This document shows positions 67 through 10,000 of a DNA stretch of 10,000 nt, in pieces. The notes beneath the pieces were generated by a model, which was not told the origin of the DNA, searched no databases, and saw nothing but the letters and a program-made list of their open reading frames with translations. Source of the DNA: Flavobacterium sp. (GTDB lineage Bacteria; Bacteroidota; Bacteroidia; Flavobacteriales; Flavobacteriaceae); the NCBI RefSeq assembly GCF_020217025.1, contig NZ_JAIWOF010000224.1, positions 1 to 10,000 on the forward strand, given 5' to 3'. Made by a program: the position numbers and the translations under genes. Numbering within the stretch: position 1 is the first letter of the stretch; the number at the start of each line of letters is the position of its first letter.

Positions 67-130
67 TTTTTAAGCTGGTAAATAATAATTTAGGTTATTG
101 ATTTTCAAGGGTTTAATTTTTAATTAAAAA

Positions 131-191
131 GAGTTTTTAAACTCATAACCCGAAGGTCACAGGTTCGAGTCCTGTTCCCGCTACTAAGAAG
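131..191 (+). pseudogene. Broken tRNA-fMet copy 1 (3' part only)
   Basis: Bases 142-191 are identical to 324-373 of the intact initiator tRNA locus: the 3' side of the anticodon arm, variable loop, T arm, acceptor 3' strand and the CTACTAAGAAG trailer. The 5' half is absent. In its place is an inverted repeat, GAGTTT-TT-AAACTC (131-144), whose last three bases are shared with the tRNA sequence. Without the 5' acceptor strand and D arm it cannot fold as a tRNA. Confidence 0.85.
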
Positions 192-212
192 TGATAATTT
201 CAGCGAGTAAGG

Positions 213-269
213 TGAGCTCATATCCGCCACGGCGGACACAGGTTCGAGTCCTGTTCCCGCTACTAAGAA
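213..269 (+). pseudogene. Broken tRNA-fMet copy 2 with palindrome in the anticodon arm
   Basis: GCTCATA (216-222) and 237-269 match the intact tRNA locus (323-329 and 340-372). The ten bases ACCCGAAGGT between them are replaced by the palindrome-like TCCGCCACGGCGGA (223-236). Upstream sequence at about 202-216 only loosely resembles a D arm. The anticodon stem cannot form, so the copy is not a functional tRNA. Confidence 0.8.
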
Positions 270-292
270 TTTATTGAATTACAACCGTACAT

Positions 293-365
293 CGCGGGAT
301 AGAGCAGTAGGCAGCTCGTCGGGCTCATAACCCGAAGGTCACAGGTTCGAGTCCTGTTCCCGCTA
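293..365 (+). tRNA. Initiator tRNA-Met (CAT)
   Basis: A complete cloverleaf of 73 nt that delivers formyl-methionine to start translation. The acceptor strand CGCGGGA (293-299) pairs with TCCCGCT (358-364) except at position 1, where C faces T. An unpaired first position is the initiator hallmark. The D arm runs from GAGC to GCTC. The anticodon stem has the three consecutive G:C pairs (GGG/CCC) typical of initiators around loop CTCATAA with anticodon CAT. The T arm is ACAGG-TTCGAGT-CCTGT (341-357), and the discriminator is A365. CCA is not encoded. A terminator follows six bases downstream. This is the only intact copy among four related sequences here. Confidence 0.95.
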
Positions 366-370
366 CTAAG

Positions 371-399
371 AAGCTTCACAGAAATGTGGAGCTTTTTTT
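371..399 (+). terminator. Rho-independent terminator of tRNA-fMet
   Basis: Stem GCTTCACA (373-380) pairs with TGTGGAGC (385-392) with one T.G wobble, around loop GAAA, and is followed by seven T. It lies directly behind the tRNA. An apparent ATG at 384 falls inside it, which argues against that start for the next gene. Confidence 0.85.
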
Positions 400-3063: not shown

Positions 3064-3081
3064 ATACGGCATATTACGTAT
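3064..3081. promoter_or_regulatory. Inverted-repeat operator candidate, site 1 (ATACG-N8-CGTAT)
   Basis: ATACG (3064-3068) and CGTAT (3077-3081) are separated by eight bases. The same motif recurs at 5944 and 8853, always between genes. It ends 21 bp before the -7 element at 3103, which centres it near -42 relative to the expected start, the position used by LuxR-type activators. The likely binder is the regulator encoded at 8200 (inference). Confidence 0.6.
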
Positions 3082-3102
3082 ATAGGCATAAAACTAAAAA
3101 AA

Positions 3103-3110
3103 TATATTTG
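3103..3110 (+). promoter_or_regulatory. Promoter -7 element of the OmpA-family gene
   Basis: TATATTTG matches TAnnTTTG exactly, 29 bp before the ATG at 3140. No -33 TTG is seen at the usual distance. The inverted repeat at 3064-3081 covers that area, which fits activator dependence. Confidence 0.6.
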
Positions 3111-3139
3111 TAAAGTTTTAATAATTAAATCTTTACGAT

Positions 3140-5218
3140 ATGCGATTAACTTTTACCCTCTTAACCTTTTTGTTGGTTTCCGCTTTTGGATTGGCACAGA
3201 ATGTAAAATTCAATGATACTTTTGATGATGATAAAAACACTTGGTCATCCAATTCTGATGGTTTTGTAACATCTGTTAATAAAGGAAAATTAACAATGGA
3301 GAACAACCATGAAAAAAACTCAAAATGGATTTGGAAAGCAATTGTTAATGATGGTACCGCTACTGATTTTGATGTTGAAGCTACTTTAATTTTGGATAAA
3401 ACACCAAATGAATATGCTACGTATGGTTTAGTTTGGGGAATGTATAGCGATAATTCAGATTACCGAGTTGTGCAGTTATCAGCCAATAAACAACTTCAAA
3501 TTTATCATTATTATGGGAGTGATTTCCATTACGATAAAAAATGGGAACCTTCAAAACAAGTGAATGGTAAAGACAAGAAGAACAAAGTAAAAGTAGAAAA
3601 AAGAGCAAATATTTATAAAGTGTTTATAAACGATGAATTGGTTTTTCAAACAGGAAATAATTCTTATTACGGAGGTAGATTCGGATTTATTGTAGATGCA
3701 GGGGTTACGCTTTTAGCTGAAGATTTTAAGGTAATTGAATATCCATCTTCAATTAATGTGGTGAAAGAATTTAATTCGAATTTAAAAATGCTAAAATTAC
3801 CAGAAACAGTTTCTAGTACAACGATTGAAGAAACAAATCCAGTAATTTCTGCAGATGGAAACATCTTGTATTTTGATAGAAAAAATAATCCATCTAACGT
3901 TGAAACCGATAAAGACGATATTTGGTATTCGGTTAAAGATAGAAATGGAAAATGGGAACAAGCAAAAAATATAGGAAGACCATTAAATAATAAAGATTAT
4001 AATTTTGTAATTTCTTCATCTCCAGACAACAATACGCTTCTGTTAGGTAATAAATATGCATCAGATGGAGTTTCTCCAAATGGAGCAGGGGTTTCAATAG
4101 CTCAAAAAGGATTGCGTGGATGGGAAATTCCAAAAGATGTGGTAATAGAAGATTATGTAAATAAAAATGATTATGTGGGGTATTTTCTTTCGAGCGATAA
4201 CAAACATTTACTTATGTCTGTGGAGCGTCCAGAAGGATATGGTTTAAAAGATATTTTTGTGAGTTACGTAAAAGAAGATGGTACATTTTCAAAACCAAAA
4301 AATTTAGGGAATGTTGTAAATTCATTCGAAGATGAAACCAATCCGTTTTTAGCTGCCGACGGAAAAACACTTTATTTTGCAAGTAAAGGACACCCTGGCT
4401 ACGGATATTACGATTTGTTTGTAAGTAAACGACTAGATGATTCTTGGACAAATTGGACAAAGCCCGAAAATTTAGGAAATATCATCAATTCTCCAGGGTA
4501 TGAATTAAGTATTTTTCTTTCAGCAAAAGGGGATAAGGCTTATGTAGGTAGAGAGCAAGACATTTGGGAAATTGATAATACCGTAAAACAAGATCCGGTG
4601 GCTTTAGTCAAAGGAAAAGTATACGATAGCAAAACGAAAAAAGTAATGAGTGCTCTAATTGTTTACAACGCACTTAAAACCAATAAAGAATTAGGAACCG
4701 CTATTTCAGATCCATCAACCGGAAGTTATTCCATCGTATTACCTTATGGCGAAAAGTACAGTTTTATGGCGGAGAAAGAAGGATATTACGCCGTTACCCA
4801 AAACGTTGATTTATCAGATTTAAAGGAATACAAAGAAATCGAAGTAGATTTATATTTGAACCCAATTGAAAAAGGAGAAATCATTCGATTAAACAATATC
4901 TTCTTTGCTTCAGGAAAATACGAATTGTTAGCAGAATCGTATGGTGAATTAGATAAATTACTTCAGGTTTTAAAATCAAATTCAAAAATGAAGATTGAAA
5001 TTTCAGGTCATACCGATGCTGTTGGAGCGGATGCAGATAACTTAACATTATCTAATAATCGTGCTAATGCCGTTATGAATTACTTGTTAGGAAAAGGAAT
5101 TGCAAAAGACAGATTGTCTGCAAAAGGATACGGAGAAACAAAATTCATTGCAACAAACGATACCGATGAAGGCAAACAATTGAACCGTAGAGTAGAGTTT
5201 GTAATTCTTGAAAAATAA
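3140..5218 (+). CDS. Multidomain OmpA-family outer membrane/periplasmic protein (PD40, CarboxypepD-like, OmpA C)
   Basis: A 692-residue exported protein. A signal peptide covers 1-19 (LLVSAFGLA, then QN). Residues about 22-200 look like a concanavalin/LamG-like beta-sandwich (FNDTFDDDKNTW opening, GRFGFIVDAG near its end). Residues about 230-485 hold PD40/TolB-like propeller blades, with two clear copies of NP-(V/F)-(I/L)-x-ADG-x-x-LYF at 233 and 401. A carboxypeptidase-regulatory-like beta domain follows (about 488-575), and then an OmpA C-terminal peptidoglycan-binding domain (about 585-692). In the last, GHTDAVG carries D626 and SNNRANAV carries R641. These are 15 apart, as for the diaminopimelate-binding Asp and Arg of OmpA. 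The propeller/CRD/OmpA order recalls PorE of the type IX secretion system, but with a beta-sandwich in place of TPRs. A role in anchoring an envelope machine to peptidoglycan is inference. The promoter carries operator candidate site 1. Confidence 0.88.
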   Translation: MRLTFTLLTFLLVSAFGLAQNVKFNDTFDDDKNTWSSNSDGFVTSVNKGKLTMENNHEKNSKWIWKAIVNDGTATDFDVEATLILDKTPNEYATYGLVWGMYSDNSDYRVVQLSANKQLQIYHYYGSDFHYDKKWEPSKQVNGKDKKNKVKVEKRANIYKVFINDELVFQTGNNSYYGGRFGFIVDAGVTLLAEDFKVIEYPSSINVVKEFNSNLKMLKLPETVSSTTIEETNPVISADGNILYFDRKNNPSNVETDKDDIWYSVKDRNGKWEQAKNIGRPLNNKDYNFVISSSPDNNTLLLGNKYASDGVSPNGAGVSIAQKGLRGWEIPKDVVIEDYVNKNDYVGYFLSSDNKHLLMSVERPEGYGLKDIFVSYVKEDGTFSKPKNLGNVVNSFEDETNPFLAADGKTLYFASKGHPGYGYYDLFVSKRLDDSWTNWTKPENLGNIINSPGYELSIFLSAKGDKAYVGREQDIWEIDNTVKQDPVALVKGKVYDSKTKKVMSALIVYNALKTNKELGTAISDPSTGSYSIVLPYGEKYSFMAEKEGYYAVTQNVDLSDLKEYKEIEVDLYLNPIEKGEIIRLNNIFFASGKYELLAESYGELDKLLQVLKSNSKMKIEISGHTDAVGADADNLTLSNNRANAVMNYLLGKGIAKDRLSAKGYGETKFIATNDTDEGKQLNRRVEFVILEK

Positions 5219-5241
5219 TTCAGGTAACTTTTCTATCTTCG
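5208..5241 (+). promoter_or_regulatory. Possible promoter of the DUF4230 gene
   Basis: TTG (5208-5210), a 23-bp spacer and TATCTTCG (5234-5241, one mismatch to TAnnTTTG) precede the ATG at 5257 by 15 bp. It has no ATACG-N8-CGTAT site. The gap to the OmpA gene is only 38 bp and has no terminator, so co-transcription is equally possible. Confidence 0.45.
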
Positions 5242-5256
5242 TGTAAAATTTAAATC

Positions 5257-5943
5257 ATGGCACGAACAAGTTCTACCGAAACCGCAATAAAAAATATGCT
5301 TATTCCATTAGTACAAGCGATTGGACGTTCGGGAAAGTTAATTTATTTGTTGATTTTGTTGATTGTTGGGTTTTTAGCGTATCAGTTTTTTACTAAAAAG
5401 GCAAATACCACAACTATTGAATATGACACCAATTTAATTCAAGTTCAAATTAAAAACGTTGGAAAATTAGTAGTAACCGAAGGACATTTTGCAGAAGTTT
5501 TAACATACAAAGACAAAAAAGAAACCTACATTCCAGGTTTGTCGTTTGATAAAAAAGCATTGGTGGTAATTAATGCCGATGTTACCGTTGGCTTCGATTT
5601 AAGTAAAGTTACCTATGATATTGATGCAAAAAATAAAGTTTTAACCATTACAAATATTCCAAAAGAAGAAATTAAAATTAGTCCTGATTTTAAATATTAT
5701 GACACCGAATCCTCAACTTTCAATGAGTTTACGGGTGACGATTATAATAAGATAAATAAAATTGCTAGAGCCAATTTGTTGAAAAAAATCGAGAAATCTA
5801 CCTTAAAAACAAATGCTCAAAATAGATTGTTGAGCGAGCTTTCTAAAATGTTGATTATAACAAATTCTTTAGGTTGGACATTATCATACAAAGGAAATGT
5901 CGTAAAAAACGATAAAGATTTAGAACTCAAAATCATCAATTAA
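5257..5943 (+). CDS. DUF4230 domain membrane-anchored protein
   Basis: 228 residues. A charged and polar N terminus (1-26) is followed by one hydrophobic anchor at about 27-45 (KLIYLLILLIVGFLAYQFF). The rest is a soluble DUF4230-type domain (about 48-225) with alternating strands such as LIQVQIKNVGKLVVTEGHF (60-78) and a C-terminal amphipathic helix region (IARANLLKKIEKSTL, about 169-183). The family is common in Bacteroidota and has no assigned function; the topology suggests an inner-membrane protein with a large soluble domain, probably extracytoplasmic. It lies 38 bp after the OmpA gene and ends at a terminator (5972-6014), so it may be the last gene of that unit. Confidence 0.82.
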   Translation: MARTSSTETAIKNMLIPLVQAIGRSGKLIYLLILLIVGFLAYQFFTKKANTTTIEYDTNLIQVQIKNVGKLVVTEGHFAEVLTYKDKKETYIPGLSFDKKALVVINADVTVGFDLSKVTYDIDAKNKVLTITNIPKEEIKISPDFKYYDTESSTFNEFTGDDYNKINKIARANLLKKIEKSTLKTNAQNRLLSELSKMLIITNSLGWTLSYKGNVVKNDKDLELKIIN

Positions 5944-5961
5944 ATACGCATTTATTCGTAT
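5944..5961. promoter_or_regulatory. Inverted-repeat operator candidate, site 2 (ATACG-N8-CGTAT)
   Basis: ATACG (5944-5948) and CGTAT (5957-5961) with an eight-base spacer, immediately behind the DUF4230 stop codon. It ends 22 bp before the -7-like CAAATTTG at 5984. This places it upstream of the operon that encodes the kinase and regulator, so autoregulation is the natural reading (inference). Confidence 0.6.
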
Positions 5962-5991
5962 TGAAAAAACCAAGTCATTAAGTCAAATTTG
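5961..5991 (+). promoter_or_regulatory. Putative promoter of the small-protein/kinase/regulator operon
   Basis: TTG (5961-5963), a 20-bp spacer and CAAATTTG (5984-5991, one mismatch to TAnnTTTG). The -7 element falls inside the terminator hairpin of the preceding gene. A transcript starting near 5997 would lack the left stem and could not form that hairpin. Confidence 0.5.
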
Positions 5992-6014
5992 TAATTGATT
6001 TAATGACTTTTTTT
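5972..6014 (+). terminator. Rho-independent terminator after the DUF4230 gene
   Basis: AAGTCATTAAGTCAA (5972-5986) pairs with TTGATTTAATGACTT (5995-6009) as a 15-bp stem with one G.T pair. The loop is eight bases, and a run of seven T (6008-6014) follows. An ATG at 6003 lies within the right stem and is therefore an unlikely start for the next gene. Confidence 0.82.
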
Positions 6015-6287
6015 ATGGATAAAATAATAGTAGTGGTTTTGTGCTTATTATTGCTCTTAGCGATAATTTTAATAATTGCTAACAAACGAATTAAGCAAAT
6101 GCATTATCATAAGATGAAGCAATTAAAAGAGGTATTTAATAGTTTATCAAGTAAGCAGGAAATATTGAATCATAAAGCCTCCATTTCAACTGATTTTCAA
6201 TCCAATTATAAATCCGATATGAAGAAATTGAGCGAAGAAATTTTTGTGCTTCAAAAAAGAATATTCGAATTACTTACAAAGAAATAA
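6015..6287 (+). CDS. Small membrane-anchored coiled-coil protein
   Basis: A 90-residue protein I do not recognise as a named family. Residues about 3-22 are a very hydrophobic helix (IIVVVLCLLLLLAIILIIAN). The rest is charged and helical, with heptad-like spacing toward the end (SEEIFVLQKRIFELLTKK, 73-90), so a short cytoplasmic or periplasmic coiled coil is likely. The start at 6015 is chosen because the in-frame ATG at 6003 sits in the preceding terminator. The gene ends 28 bp before the histidine kinase, probably in the same transcript, with operator candidate site 2 upstream. The context suggests an accessory or partner of the two-component system, but nothing in the sequence proves it. 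Confidence 0.7.
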   Translation: MDKIIVVVLCLLLLLAIILIIANKRIKQMHYHKMKQLKEVFNSLSSKQEILNHKASISTDFQSNYKSDMKKLSEEIFVLQKRIFELLTKK

Positions 6288-6292
6288 TTTAG

Positions 6293-6300
6293 TACTTTTA
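6293..6300 (+). promoter_or_regulatory. Possible internal -7 element before the kinase gene
   Basis: TACTTTTA has one mismatch to TAnnTTTG and lies 15 bp before the ATG at 6316. No -33 TTG is seen. It is weak support for a separate kinase promoter. Confidence 0.25.
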
Positions 6301-6315
6301 GTATATAAAATCCAA

Positions 6316-8196
6316 ATGATGAACAAATATTTAGTCATAGTCTTATCGTTGTGTTTTCAGTTTGTAAATGCACAAAAAGAGCCTAATACGACTTATCAAT
6401 TTCTAAAAAAAATAGACGACATCAATTATTTGAACGATGCAAAAAACAAATCGGCTATCGATTCTTTACACTTGATAATTGATAAAAATTCAAACGATAC
6501 TATAAAAGGATATTTCTACAGAATTGAGGCTAAATTTTTGATCAATCAATTAGAACATGATGCCGCTTTAAAAAGTTTGGACAAATCCATCGCTTTTTAC
6601 AAAAACGCTAATCATTCATTGGGAATTATAAAATCTATGATGAACAAAGGCGGTGTTTTGTATCAAAAAGGCGAAGCAAAAAAAGCAACGCAAGAATATG
6701 TCAATGCTTTAGCAATAGCAGAAAAAAAAGGATATAAAAATGAAATTGCAGCTTTGTACAAGAACATCGGACTCGTTTATTATTCGCAAGGAAAAACAAA
6801 AGAAGCTTTGGCTTACAACAATAAAGCTTTAGTTATTTTTAATCAATTACAATCTAAAAAAGATATTGCAGCAACTTATGTCAATATCGGAAATTGTTAT
6901 TTCGACGATTACCAACCTCAAAATGCTTTGTTGAATTATAATAAAGCCTTGGAATTATCAAAAGAAACAAATGACAACCAAACGATTGCGAAGTTGTATA
7001 ATAACATTGGTTCGGTTTACATCAACGATTTGCAAGACACCATCAAAGGAATCGATTATTTGTTAGATGCTTTAGCCATAAAAAAACAGATGAACAACCA
7101 AAACGATTTGATTATTCAATACAACAACATTGCAGCGGTTTATTTAGATATTAAAAAATACGATTTAGCGCTGAGTTATAATGATAAAGCCTTTGAATTG
7201 GCTTCTAAATCGGGAAATCTGGAAGAATTAATCAATGTTTATGATACGTATGCATTAATTAATTCGGCAAAAAAAGATTTTAAAAAAGCCTACGATTATC
7301 ATAAACTGTATTCAAAAGCAAAAGATTCTTTATTGAATATTGACAATTTAAAAGCAGTCGAAGAAATCAATACCAAATACCAAACCGCTGAAAAAGAAAA
7401 GCAACTGTTACAAAAAGAAGCCGAAGCCAAAAAGAAAACCACAACTATAATTATTCTTTCGCTATTAGCCTTTTTCATTGCGATTGTTGGGTTTTTAATT
7501 TACCGTCAACAACGTTTGAAAAATTTGCAACAAAAGCAAGAATTTGAATTGCAATCGGCTATTGCACAAATCGAAAATCAAAATAAATTACACGAACAAC
7601 GTTTGGCGATTTCAAGAGATTTGCATGACAATATTGGAGCGCAATTGACATTTATTATTTCTTCGGTTGAGAATTTGAAATTCGGATTTCCAACAATGGA
7701 GAATTCGATTAAAAATCATTTGACGAAGATTAGCGATTTTACGAAAACTACGATTGTAGAACTTCGCGACACGATTTGGGCTATGAATGCTAACGAATTT
7801 ACGTTTGACGATTTAAGTTCCAGAATTTATAATTTCATCGAAAAAGCGCAATCGGTAAAAGAAAATACAGCGTTCAAATTTTCGGTTGATGACAGTTTAA
7901 AAAACAGTAAGTTTTCCTCTTTAGAAGGGGTTAATTTGTACAGAACCATTCAAGAAGCGGTGAATAATGCTATTAAATATGCTGATGCAACCGAAGTGTC
8001 AGTTCAAGTAAAACCAAATGAAAACGGAATTACAATTGAAATTTCAGATAACGGAAAAGGTTTTGATATCGACACAATCGATTTAGGAAACGGAATTGTA
8101 AACATGCAAAAACGTATCGAAGAAATTGGTGGTGTTTTTAAAATCCAATCCGAACTTAACAAAGGAACTCAAATCACAATTTCTCTAAACAAATAA
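6316..8196 (+). CDS. TPR-containing sensor histidine kinase (HisKA_3/HPK7 type)
   Basis: 626 residues, the sensor of a two-component system. Signal peptide 1-19 (LCFQFVNA, then Q), then a periplasmic region of about seven TPR units (about 40-345; clear ones include ALYKNIGLVYYSQGKTKEAL). A coiled coil leads into one transmembrane helix (about 377-398). The cytoplasmic part holds the dimerisation/phosphoacceptor motif SRDLHDNIGAQL with H437, the N box EAVNNAIKYA (N550/N551), G1 DNGKGFD (578-584) and G2 GNGIVNM (591-597). All key kinase residues are present. TPRs outside the membrane suggest that the signal is a protein partner. Start: the reading frame extends upstream into the previous gene, but ATG 6316 (or 6319, giving MNKYLV) places the signal peptide at the N terminus. 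The response regulator follows after 3 bp. Confidence 0.93.
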   Translation: MMNKYLVIVLSLCFQFVNAQKEPNTTYQFLKKIDDINYLNDAKNKSAIDSLHLIIDKNSNDTIKGYFYRIEAKFLINQLEHDAALKSLDKSIAFYKNANHSLGIIKSMMNKGGVLYQKGEAKKATQEYVNALAIAEKKGYKNEIAALYKNIGLVYYSQGKTKEALAYNNKALVIFNQLQSKKDIAATYVNIGNCYFDDYQPQNALLNYNKALELSKETNDNQTIAKLYNNIGSVYINDLQDTIKGIDYLLDALAIKKQMNNQNDLIIQYNNIAAVYLDIKKYDLALSYNDKAFELASKSGNLEELINVYDTYALINSAKKDFKKAYDYHKLYSKAKDSLLNIDNLKAVEEINTKYQTAEKEKQLLQKEAEAKKKTTTIIILSLLAFFIAIVGFLIYRQQRLKNLQQKQEFELQSAIAQIENQNKLHEQRLAISRDLHDNIGAQLTFIISSVENLKFGFPTMENSIKNHLTKISDFTKTTIVELRDTIWAMNANEFTFDDLSSRIYNFIEKAQSVKENTAFKFSVDDSLKNSKFSSLEGVNLYRTIQEAVNNAIKYADATEVSVQVKPNENGITIEISDNGKGFDIDTIDLGNGIVNMQKRIEEIGGVFKIQSELNKGTQITISLNK

Positions 8197-8199
8197 TCC

Positions 8200-8847
8200 A
8201 TGATTAGAATTGCCATAGTTGACGATAATACATTTCTTCAAAAAACCATTCAAGATAAATTGAGTTTTTTCGCAGATGTTGAGGTGCGTATGAAAGCCAT
8301 TCACGGACAAGATATCATTGAAAAATTAGAAAAAAATCACAATCTCGATTTAATTCTGATGGATATCGAAATGCCAAAAATGAATGGTATCGAAGCAACG
8401 GCAATCATCAAATCAAAGTTTCCACAAATCAAAATCATCATGCTAACGGTTTTTGATAACGATGAAAATATTTTCAAAGCCATAAAAGCAGGAGCCGATG
8501 GTTATTTTTTAAAAGAAGTCAATCCACAAGAATTGTATAACGGAATTCAAGAAACCTTATCTGGTGGCGCAGGAATGACGCCTTCCATTGCATTAAAAAC
8601 ACTAAAATTATTACGTGAACCTTTAGTTTTTGATGATTCAATCACCAAAGAAGAAATCAGTTTAACTTCAAGAGAAATCGAAGTTTTGGAGCAATTAAGC
8701 AAAGGATTAAAATACAACGCCATTGCCGAAAACTTGTTTTTATCACCAGGAACAATTCGTAAACATGTGGAGAATATTTACACTAAACTTCAAGTTCACA
8801 ATAAGTTGGAAGCCATTCAAAAAGCAAAAAACAACAAGTTGATATAA
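8200..8847 (+). CDS. LuxR/NarL-family response regulator
   Basis: 215 residues, the partner of the kinase 3 bp upstream. The receiver domain (1-120) has the acidic pair D8/D9, phosphoacceptor D55 in LILMDIEMP, T83 and K105, so it should be phosphorylatable. A linker joins it to a GerE/LuxR-type helix-turn-helix (about 153-212; LTSREIEVLEQLSKG then IAENLFLSPGTIRKHVENIY), which usually binds inverted repeats as a dimer after phosphorylation. The three ATACG-N8-CGTAT sites in this window, near -42 at three promoters, are the obvious target candidates. No clear terminator follows; a weak TTGAT/ATCAA stem at 8839-8851 lacks a T tract. Confidence 0.95.
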   Translation: MIRIAIVDDNTFLQKTIQDKLSFFADVEVRMKAIHGQDIIEKLEKNHNLDLILMDIEMPKMNGIEATAIIKSKFPQIKIIMLTVFDNDENIFKAIKAGADGYFLKEVNPQELYNGIQETLSGGAGMTPSIALKTLKLLREPLVFDDSITKEEISLTSREIEVLEQLSKGLKYNAIAENLFLSPGTIRKHVENIYTKLQVHNKLEAIQKAKNNKLI

Positions 8848-8852
8848 TCAAT

Positions 8853-8890
8853 ATACGAATTTCTACGTATTTCTTTACGTACGTCTACCG
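8853..8890. promoter_or_regulatory. Inverted-repeat operator candidate, site 3, with extra half-sites
   Basis: ATACG (8853-8857) and CGTAT (8866-8870) again with an eight-base spacer. More TACG-type half-sites follow: TACG at 8876 and 8880 (within the palindrome ACGTACGT, 8877-8884) and TACCG at 8886. The core site ends 22 bp before the -7-like TAATTTTA at 8893. Of the three sites this is the densest, so it may bind more than one regulator dimer (inference). Confidence 0.6.
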
Positions 8891-8892
8891 CA

Positions 8893-8900
8893 TAATTTTA
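8893..8900 (+). promoter_or_regulatory. Putative -7 element of the barrel-protein gene
   Basis: TAATTTTA has one mismatch to TAnnTTTG. No -33 TTG is found at 17-23 bp. Its distance from operator site 3 (22 bp) matches the arrangement at the other two promoters. The leader to ATG 8947 would be about 40 nt. Confidence 0.45.
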
Positions 8901-9663: not shown

Positions 9664-10000
9664 ATGAAAAAAATAATCACAATTATAGCCGTATTGGTAG
9701 TAAGTTTTACGAATGCACAAATTGCAAAATACAAAGCTTCTGATTTTAATTTAACTTCAGATGTAACAAAATACGAAGAGAAAGAGTTTTATTTTGATTT
9801 CGAATTAAATAAATATAAGTTATCAAATACAAGAACGATTTATTTAGAAAAAGGTTTGGTTACAAAAATCGAAAACATGTCTAATTATTTCATGTACATG
9901 GAAGGAACGAATACGTTTAATTATAAAAACGGATTACTGCAATCGATTCATATTAAAACACAATTAGGCGAATACACTGAAAACTACGTGTATAAAAATG
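9664..10000 (+). CDS. Secreted protein, truncated by the window end
   Basis: The first 112 codons are visible with no stop. A signal peptide covers about 1-18 (MKKIITIIAVLVVSFTNA, then Q). The mature start is polar and strand-rich, including FYFDFELNKYKLSNTRTIYL and a YKNGLLQSIHIKTQLGEY stretch that resembles MORN-like or YD-like short repeats, though too little is visible to say. No family is recognised. It starts 12 bp after the barrel-protein gene without its own promoter, so it probably shares that promoter and operator site 3. Confidence 0.7.
   Translation, partial: MKKIITIIAVLVVSFTNAQIAKYKASDFNLTSDVTKYEEKEFYFDFELNKYKLSNTRTIYLEKGLVTKIENMSNYFMYMEGTNTFNYKNGLLQSIHIKTQLGEYTENYVYKN

What the first reader, a model, noticed from the sequence alone, without database searches (positions are those of the whole stretch)
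3064..8870. Three identical-spacing inverted repeats ATACG-N8-CGTAT define a likely regulon of the encoded two-component system
The 18-bp motif occurs at 3064-3081, 5944-5961 and 8853-8870, always intergenic, and I found no other copy. Each ends 21, 22 or 22 bp before a TAnnTTTG-like -7 element (3103, 5984, 8893), centring it near -42, where LuxR-type activators bind. Assuming about one third G+C, ten fixed bases would be expected roughly 0.01 times in 10 kb. The three targets are the OmpA-family gene, the small protein/kinase/regulator operon and the barrel-protein gene. The -33 element is missing at two of the three promoters, which fits activation. That the regulator at 8200 is the binder is inference.
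Basis: partly seen in the sequence, partly recalled or inferred. Interest (0 to 1): 0.75.

Follow-up and report, generated by a model that had tools for sequence, protein, structure and literature searches.

The report
Self-wired NarL-type switch and its operators
Three copies of a short DNA palindrome in this flavobacterial sequence are very probably landing sites where the neighbouring two-component regulator switches on its own genes and adjacent cell-envelope genes, a conserved arrangement of a familiar kind.

Summary
In detail: ATACG-N8-CGTAT sits at the three stated places (0 expected), each 21-22 nt before a -7-like box. The own genome (2.53 Mb, 93% complete) has six exact copies: these, and three around a paralogous TPR-kinase/LuxR-type regulator pair. 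A third paralog has two diverged copies beside it. In 79 loci fetched by regulator homology, 97 exact copies occur (87 intergenic; arm-reversed control 1). Of 89 copies oriented by their downstream gene.AnnTTT starts 22 nt downstream in 79. In 299 family genomes, sites with either of two regulator-type cores plus the box occur in 54, of which 53 encode the regulator; 56 of 69 such sites lie within 12 kb of it. Core sequence tracks a residue at the recognition helix. Best reading: a NarL/FixJ-type regulator binds a 7-2-7 inverted repeat centred near -43 and activates its own operon and neighbouring envelope genes. The regulon looks local, not genome-wide. Binding is not shown experimentally. 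New member of a known kind. In passing: the same promoter geometry beside a second LuxR-type regulator heads tandem small-RNA-like units without an Rfam match.

The parts
3064..3081 (+). operator 1, ATACGGCATATTACGTAT, centred about -42.5
   Evidence: present with its -7 box in the close relative G012
3103..3110 (+). -7 box TATATTTG of promoter 1, 21 nt after operator 1
3140..5218 (+). target 1: signal-peptide protein with PD40 repeats and C-terminal OmpA domain; below the cut-offs of the PorE and CHU_0125 families
   Evidence: Pfam, NCBIfam; signal peptide by eye
5944..5961 (+). operator 2, ATACGCATTTATTCGTAT, centred about -43.5, immediately after the stop of the DUF4230 gene
   Evidence: equivalent sites in 7 further loci
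5972..6009 (+). hairpin (stem 5972-5986 with 5995-6009) running into T7; reads as a terminator of the upstream DUF4230 gene; the -7 box of promoter 2 lies at its loop
   Evidence: fold of 5930-6020, z -4.2; 92.5% of cells paired in 8 loci, 3 of 15 pairs with a change on both sides
5984..5991 (+). -7 box CAAATTTG of promoter 2, 22 nt after operator 2
6003..6287 (+). target 2a: 94-aa (90-aa from the ATG at 6015) single-TM small protein, first gene of the kinase/regulator operon
   Evidence: no Pfam or NCBIfam match; TM by eye
6313..8196 (+). target 2b: sensor histidine kinase, TPR repeats then HisKA_3 and HATPase_c; TPRs probably periplasmic
   Evidence: Pfam; matches the FimS model over residues 47-590 with 88.5 bits against a cut-off of 600; topology by eye
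8200..8847 (+). target 2c and presumed binder: NarL/FixJ-type response regulator (receiver plus GerE/LuxR HTH)
   Evidence: Pfam; aligned with NarL and VraR
8853..8870 (+). operator 3, ATACGAATTTCTACGTAT, centred about -43.5
   Evidence: equivalent sites in 4 further loci
8893..8900 (+). -7 box TAATTTTA of promoter 3, 22 nt after operator 3
   Evidence: signal peptide by eye

Best explanation
The three palindromes are operators of the response regulator encoded at 8200-8847, a NarL/FixJ-type protein presumably phosphorylated by the TPR-containing kinase at 6313-8196. Shown by sequence: each site is a 16-bp TACGNNN-NN-NNNCGTA (7-2-7) inverted repeat flanked by A and T, placed so that its centre is near -43 of a promoter whose -33 element is absent or would overlap the right arm. 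Inferred: the phosphorylated regulator binds as a dimer beside sigma and recruits RNA polymerase (class II activation). This switches on its own small-protein/kinase/regulator operon (positive feedback) and the flanking envelope genes (PD40-OmpA protein, secreted 234-aa protein). The visible regulon is the local cluster. Paralogous cassettes in the same genome carry their own, partly diverged operators, which would reduce cross-talk.
For: Exact sites and spacing. Own genome: six exact copies, all beside two paralogous kinase/regulator pairs; control 0. Third paralog (C94, 61% identical) has ATACGCCAAACGGCTTAT just after its stop and ATACGCTTTTTGGCTAAT before its operon. 79 regulator loci: 97 exact sites, 87 intergenic; control 1 and 0. 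89 oriented sites, all in the regulator's direction.AnnTTT at offset 22 in 79 and at 21-23 in 85; at offset 22 in 50 of 60 after redundancy removal and in 75 of 84 without the own genome. Kinase relative adjacent upstream in 68 of 76 loci. Regulator-type sites: 53 of 54 genomes carrying them have the regulator, against 23 of the 245 others; Fisher p 3e-39; 56 of 69 sites within 12 kb of the regulator. First downstream gene is the regulator itself in 15 of 86 scanned. Residue 184 tracks core type. NarL's engineered site TACCCCTAAAGGGGTA has the same 7-2-7 form, and 7-2-7 sites lie at -40/-49 (napF) and -38/-47 (yeaR) (PMC4549865 passages).
Against: No binding or expression data. The bare 10-base palindrome occurs in 27 of 40 relatives, in large genomes at about control level. 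56 of 223 genomes without a detected regulator have a site plus box of some core; at least part of this belongs to a second LuxR-type regulator. Genome G331 has a regulator-type site without a detected regulator. Three of 76 regulator genomes have no exact site plus box, and 7 of 86 loci have none even with two arm mismatches. Core/helix association is not tree-corrected, residue 156 ranks above 184 by z-score, and Gly184 goes with both core types (24 and 12).
Confidence: 0.87

Rival explanations
1. The sites are real operators of a NarL-type regulator but the C148 paralog (69% identical), alone or together with the window's regulator, binds them, so the clusters form one shared regulon.
For: Both regulators have sites with the same arms and nearly the same spacing; R187, K188 and H189 are shared.
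Against: Cores differ: C148 sites carry CA..TG or its right half, window sites carry at most one CA; residue 184 is Gly in the window's regulator, Ala in C148, Ser in C94. In other genomes core type goes with residue 184.
Confidence: 0.3
2. The palindromes are repressor sites: the regulator blocks transcription from these promoters.
For: NarL itself represses at some promoters, for example frdA (PMC4549865 passages); a site near -43 could occlude the -33 region.
Against: The spacing to the -7 box is fixed to within 1 nt in 85 of 89 sites, as expected for contact with polymerase; the box is weak (TAnnTTTG exactly in 14 of 89) and a -33 TTG can be read at the arm's end in 43 of 89 only.
Confidence: 0.07
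3. The palindromes act as RNA hairpins or terminators rather than protein sites.
For: Site 5944-5961 can form a short RNA hairpin.
Against: They lie upstream of the -7 box and so outside the transcript they precede; no T-run follows the three sites' arms in the manner of the hairpin at 5972-6009; co-occurrence with a DNA-binding protein.
Confidence: 0.02
4. Chance: three coincidental palindromes.
For: None.
Against: 0 expected in the window, six in the genome, all in regulator clusters.
Confidence: 0.005

Closest known systems
Escherichia coli NarX/NarL (and NarQ/NarP), 7-2-7 operators
   Same: Receiver plus LuxR-type HTH; inverted heptamers 2 bp apart beginning TAC and ending GTA; upstream 7-2-7 sites at -40/-49 (napF) and -38/-47 (yeaR) (PMC4549865 passages); window regulator aligns with NarL over residues 4-206.
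   Different: 126 bits against NCBIfam's NarL cut-off of 250; arms TACGNNN rather than TACCCCT; the kinase has TPRs; targets are local envelope genes; a partner activator such as FNR was not sought.
Porphyromonas gingivalis FimS/FimR
   Same: Bacteroidota kinase; window kinase scores 88.5 bits over residues 47-590 against the FimS model. FimR binds the mfa1 promoter and activates it directly (PMC1974823 passages).
   Different: Far below the FimS cut-off of 600; FimS/FimR controls fimbriae; the terms 'palindrom' and 'inverted' do not occur in the main text of PMC1974823; FimR's sequence was not compared here.
VraR response regulators of Gram-positive bacteria
   Same: Best solved-structure matches of the regulator (8e-31).
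   Different: Different phylum and kinase (recalled); operators not compared.

Membership tests
NarL/FixJ-type (LuxR-HTH) response regulators | N-terminal receiver domain above Pfam cut-off | tested here: met
   PF00072, 86.1 bits against 30.2
NarL/FixJ-type (LuxR-HTH) response regulators | C-terminal GerE/LuxR HTH above Pfam cut-off | tested here: met
   PF00196, 65.2 bits against 23.5
NarL/FixJ-type (LuxR-HTH) response regulators | Encoded with a HisKA_3-type kinase | tested here: met
   HisKA_3 and HATPase_c in 6313-8196; kinase relative within 600 nt upstream in 68 of 76 loci
NarL/FixJ-type (LuxR-HTH) response regulators | Binds an inverted-repeat operator | not testable with these tools
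   Only sequence association
NarL proper (NCBIfam NF007935) | Score above curated cut-off | tested here: not met
   126.4 bits against 250
NarL-type 7-2-7 operator | Two 7-bp inverted half-sites 2 bp apart, TAC...GTA ends | tested here: met
   TACGNNN-NN-NNNCGTA in the exact sites compared with TACCCCT-AA-AGGGGTA; only the outer five bases of each half are inverted in the window's sites
FimS/FimR of P. gingivalis | Kinase above FimS cut-off | tested here: not met
   88.5 bits against 600
Class II activator promoter | Operator centred near -42, fixed to about 1 nt, touching the -35/-33 region | tested here: met
   85 of 89 sites with .AnnTTT at 21-23 nt; box position from PMC9723704
Class II activator promoter | Transcription rises when the regulator is active | not testable with these tools
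   No expression data held
PorE family of the type IX secretion system (target 1) | Score above NCBIfam NF052230 cut-off | tested here: not met
   203.5 bits against 600

The most novel reading that the evidence does not exclude
A widespread Bacteroidota family of self-contained signalling cassettes: a TPR kinase and NarL-type regulator activate their own operon and adjacent envelope genes from a rigid -43 operator, and when cassettes are duplicated side by side the operators and one position at the recognition helix (184: Gly, Ala or Ser in the three paralogs here) diverge together so that each cassette becomes insulated. The same operator-promoter geometry is used by a second LuxR-type regulator to drive tandem arrays of small RNAs.
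Probability: 0.45. Interest if true: 0.62.

Novelty: new member of a known kind. Interest (0 to 1): 0.5.

Why it matters
Few operators seem to be assigned to LuxR-type response regulators of Bacteroidota (an impression from the listings and from recall). This gives a precise, testable operator-promoter rule for a regulator detected in 76 of 299 family genomes examined, predicts its targets, and offers a natural experiment, with three paralogs in one genome, on how duplicated two-component systems become separated at the DNA level.

Tried and rejected
Genome-wide regulon: relaxing the own-genome scan to 3 mismatches in palindrome plus box gave 51 and 51 hits against controls of 46 and 49, so nothing beyond the clusters stands above noise. 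Two-mismatch hits elsewhere (C12, C69, C166, C192, C211, C224) were not followed.

Bare palindrome as marker in relatives: rejected. It occurs in 27 of 40 relatives and its counts in large genomes resemble the control; adding the -7 box and core type made it specific.

Mutual-information ranking of regulator residues: residue 184 is first by excess information but second to 156 by z, and several receiver and linker columns also score, so phylogeny contributes. The nearest-pair contrast (22 concordant, 2 discordant, 12 ties of 36) is a partial correction only; no tree was built. Of 184 sites used, 40 have two arm mismatches and may include chance hits; with at most one mismatch the table is Gly 24 other/12 CA..TG, non-Gly 2/28.

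G331 exception: in the notebook I took an 82-aa ORF for a kinase remnant; it has no Pfam match, so that is unproven and the exception stays unexplained.

Promoter footprint: I picked the orthologous sites by exact arms, so their invariant arms are partly by construction; only spacer, core and box are informative.

Papers: the ten searches listed nothing that I recognised as describing this motif. Beyond titles and abstract openings I saw passages of PMC1974823, PMC3878776 and PMC4549865, and passages, outline and abstract of PMC9723704.
Full report
CHECK OF THE OBSERVATION. ATACG-N8-CGTAT occurs three times in the window, at the stated coordinates, with none expected. All copies are intergenic. 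The -7-like boxes lie 21, 22 and 22 nt downstream. The box at 5984 begins with C and the one at 8893 ends with A, so only the first is a perfect TAnnTTTG. With the flavobacterial box at -12 to -5 (PMC9723704, passages seen), the centres are -42.5, -43.5 and -43.5.

OWN GENOME. The assembly holding the window (2,527,226 bases, 238 contigs, 92.75% complete) has six exact copies and no reversed-pattern copy. The other three are on contig C148, around a paralogous TPR kinase and a LuxR-type regulator 69% identical to the window's. There they stand before a 159-aa protein gene, before the kinase gene, and after the regulator gene at the contig's end. A third regulator, 61% identical, lies on C94 behind its own small protein and kinase. 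It has a one-mismatch copy just after its stop and a two-mismatch copy before the small-protein gene. In the near relative G012 all three clusters lie on one contig: regulators at 11.8, 19.1 and 47.2 kb, exact sites at 19.0, 21.9, 24.8, 42.3, 45.2 and 47.9 kb. With three mismatches allowed over palindrome and box, hits equal the control, so the visible regulon is confined to these clusters.

RELATED LOCI. They hold 97 exact palindromes, 87 intergenic, in 1.46 Mb, of which about 119 kb is intergenic by my ORF rule; a control with reversed arms gives 1 and 0. With the window and C148 added there are 103 sites: 89 could be oriented by their downstream gene, 9 lie in predicted ORFs (several of them short and doubtful) and 5 are ambiguous. 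All 89 point in the regulator's direction. The -7 box was not used to orient them. .AnnTTT starts at offset 22 in 79 of 89, at 21-23 in 85, and at each other offset in at most 7. After removing near-duplicates 50 of 60 have it at offset 22; without the own genome 75 of 84. The first base of the box is more often C (37) than T (29), and perfect TAnnTTTG is found in 14 of 89. TG follows the palindrome in 43 of 89, which can be read as a -33 TTG overlapping the right arm. Many of these promoters thus look as if they need an activator.

TARGETS. Of the 89 downstream genes I scanned 86 (three short or fragmentary ORFs, in L139, L140 and L151, were left out): 20 match DUF6252, 15 are receiver-LuxR regulators (the cassette's own by position), 4 are TPR kinases, 2 are PD40-OmpA proteins. 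By eye about a dozen are the small single-TM protein that precedes the kinase, although tblastn with the window's copy finds it in only 5 of 79 loci. A kinase relative lies within 600 nt upstream of the regulator in 68 of 76 loci with enough sequence. So autoregulation plus neighbouring envelope genes is the recurring theme.

CO-OCCURRENCE. In 299 genomes of the family the regulator (E at most 1e-50) was found in 76. Palindrome plus box with any core is in 129 genomes: 73 of the 76 with the regulator and 56 of the 223 without. Restricting the core to nCAnnTGn gives 28 genomes, all with the regulator; nAWTTCnT gives 28, of which 27 have it. These two cores were chosen after seeing the loci, which come from a different but overlapping collection. 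Together 53 of 54, against 23 of the 245 other genomes, Fisher p 3e-39, without correction for relatedness. 56 of the 69 sites lie within 12 kb of a regulator gene. The own genome is included. The exception, G331 (84% complete), has its site before a DUF6252 gene and no detected regulator; unexplained.

CORE AND RECOGNITION HELIX. For 86 regulator loci (L140 and L075 left out beforehand), 79 had at least one site with up to two arm mismatches and the box; L158 was dropped as a near-duplicate of the window, leaving 78. Where residue 184 is Gly, 24 loci have other cores and 12 have CA..TG; where it is not Gly, 5 and 37 (Fisher 6e-7, not tree-corrected). With at most one arm mismatch the non-Gly row is 2 and 28. 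Closest pairs differing at 184: 22 concordant, 2 discordant, 12 ties. In the own genome the residue is Gly (window), Ala (C148) and Ser (C94), with three different operator sets. Residue 184 precedes the T-[IV]-R-K-H stretch that aligns with NarL's T-V-K-V-H; that this is NarL's recognition helix, and which residues touch DNA, is recalled.

FOOTPRINT. Orthologous promoters were picked by exact arms, so invariant arms are partly by construction. At least 7 of 8 box positions are kept, against 8 to 13 of 22 spacer positions, for the three window sites. For site 3064 only one relative was available and its upstream coding end is as conserved as the site; the three C148 promoters, each with one relative, keep 15 to 19 of 22 spacer positions and are less informative.

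MECHANISM. The 16-bp TACGNNN-NN-NNNCGTA has the form of NarL's 7-2-7 site, for example TACCCCTAAAGGGGTA, and NarL acts at napF and yeaR from 7-2-7 sites at -40/-49 and -38/-47 (PMC4549865, passages). The best reading is therefore a phosphorylated NarL-type dimer acting as a class II activator. The kinase has TPR repeats ahead of its HisKA_3 and HATPase domains; by eye there is a signal peptide and one TM, so the TPRs would be periplasmic. The signal is unknown.

WHAT IS SHOWN AND WHAT IS INFERRED. Shown: site positions, spacing, recurrence, co-occurrence, core/residue association. Inferred: identity of the binder (strongly), activation rather than repression (moderately), positive feedback, insulation of paralogs (weakly). 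Not shown: any binding or expression.

VERDICT. A well-supported operator family for a NarL-type regulator, not recognised in the paper listings searched, of a known kind.

Noticed in passing
L206:3043-3550, L207:2385-2900, L208:2460-2884 (- strand), L211:2236-2505, L209:2461-2760, L212:2024-2500, L213:2445-3095: In 7 of 8 such loci fetched, 2-4 tandem units (often about 145 bp apart) follow directly behind a second LuxR-type regulator gene (Pfam-checked in 3), itself behind an aspartyl-protease-like gene (Pfam-checked in 1). Each unit begins with the same palindrome and -7 spacing; 17 of 20 units, aligned, share a TACAnTGCTATTAATT-like leader and a hairpin in which 11 of 14 pairs show a change on both sides. 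No Rfam family reaches its gathering score. They look like regulator-driven tandem small RNAs.
   Followed up: partly
window 5972-6009: The -7 box of the kinase/regulator promoter lies at the loop of a hairpin that runs into T7 and pairs in relatives (92.5% of cells in 8 loci against 17-46% when slid; 3 of 15 pairs changed on both sides): apparently the terminator of the upstream DUF4230 gene and the next promoter share the same bases.
   Followed up: partly
window 6003-6287; L063:3380-3640; L083:7752-8045 and others: A small single-TM protein of about 90 aa precedes the TPR kinase in many cassettes (by eye; the window's copy has no Pfam match); a candidate accessory component. The listed ATG at 6003 lies in the hairpin, so 6015 may be the start.
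   Followed up: no
G012 contig C2, 11.7-48 kb (L064-L066); own contigs C93, C94, C148: Three paralogous kinase/regulator cassettes lie within about 36 kb in a close relative, so C93 and C94 are probably neighbours in the own genome.
   Followed up: partly
window 9664-10000 and L063:3-3319: The gene starting at window 9664 and three genes at the start of C94 look, by eye, like related signal-peptide proteins (one is cut at its start); those on C94 carry repeated Y-D-x-x-G-N motifs. They would form an array between the first and third cassettes.
   Followed up: no
window 130-380 and 660-730: A tRNA gene (293-365, Rfam RF00005) is surrounded, by eye, by several partial copies of its 3' part; a GIY-YIG gene (384-662) lies among them.
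   Followed up: no
L214:7507-8103 (genome G331): A regulator-type site before a DUF6252 gene in an 84%-complete genome in which the regulator was not found: missing data or a cassette that has lost it.
   Followed up: partly
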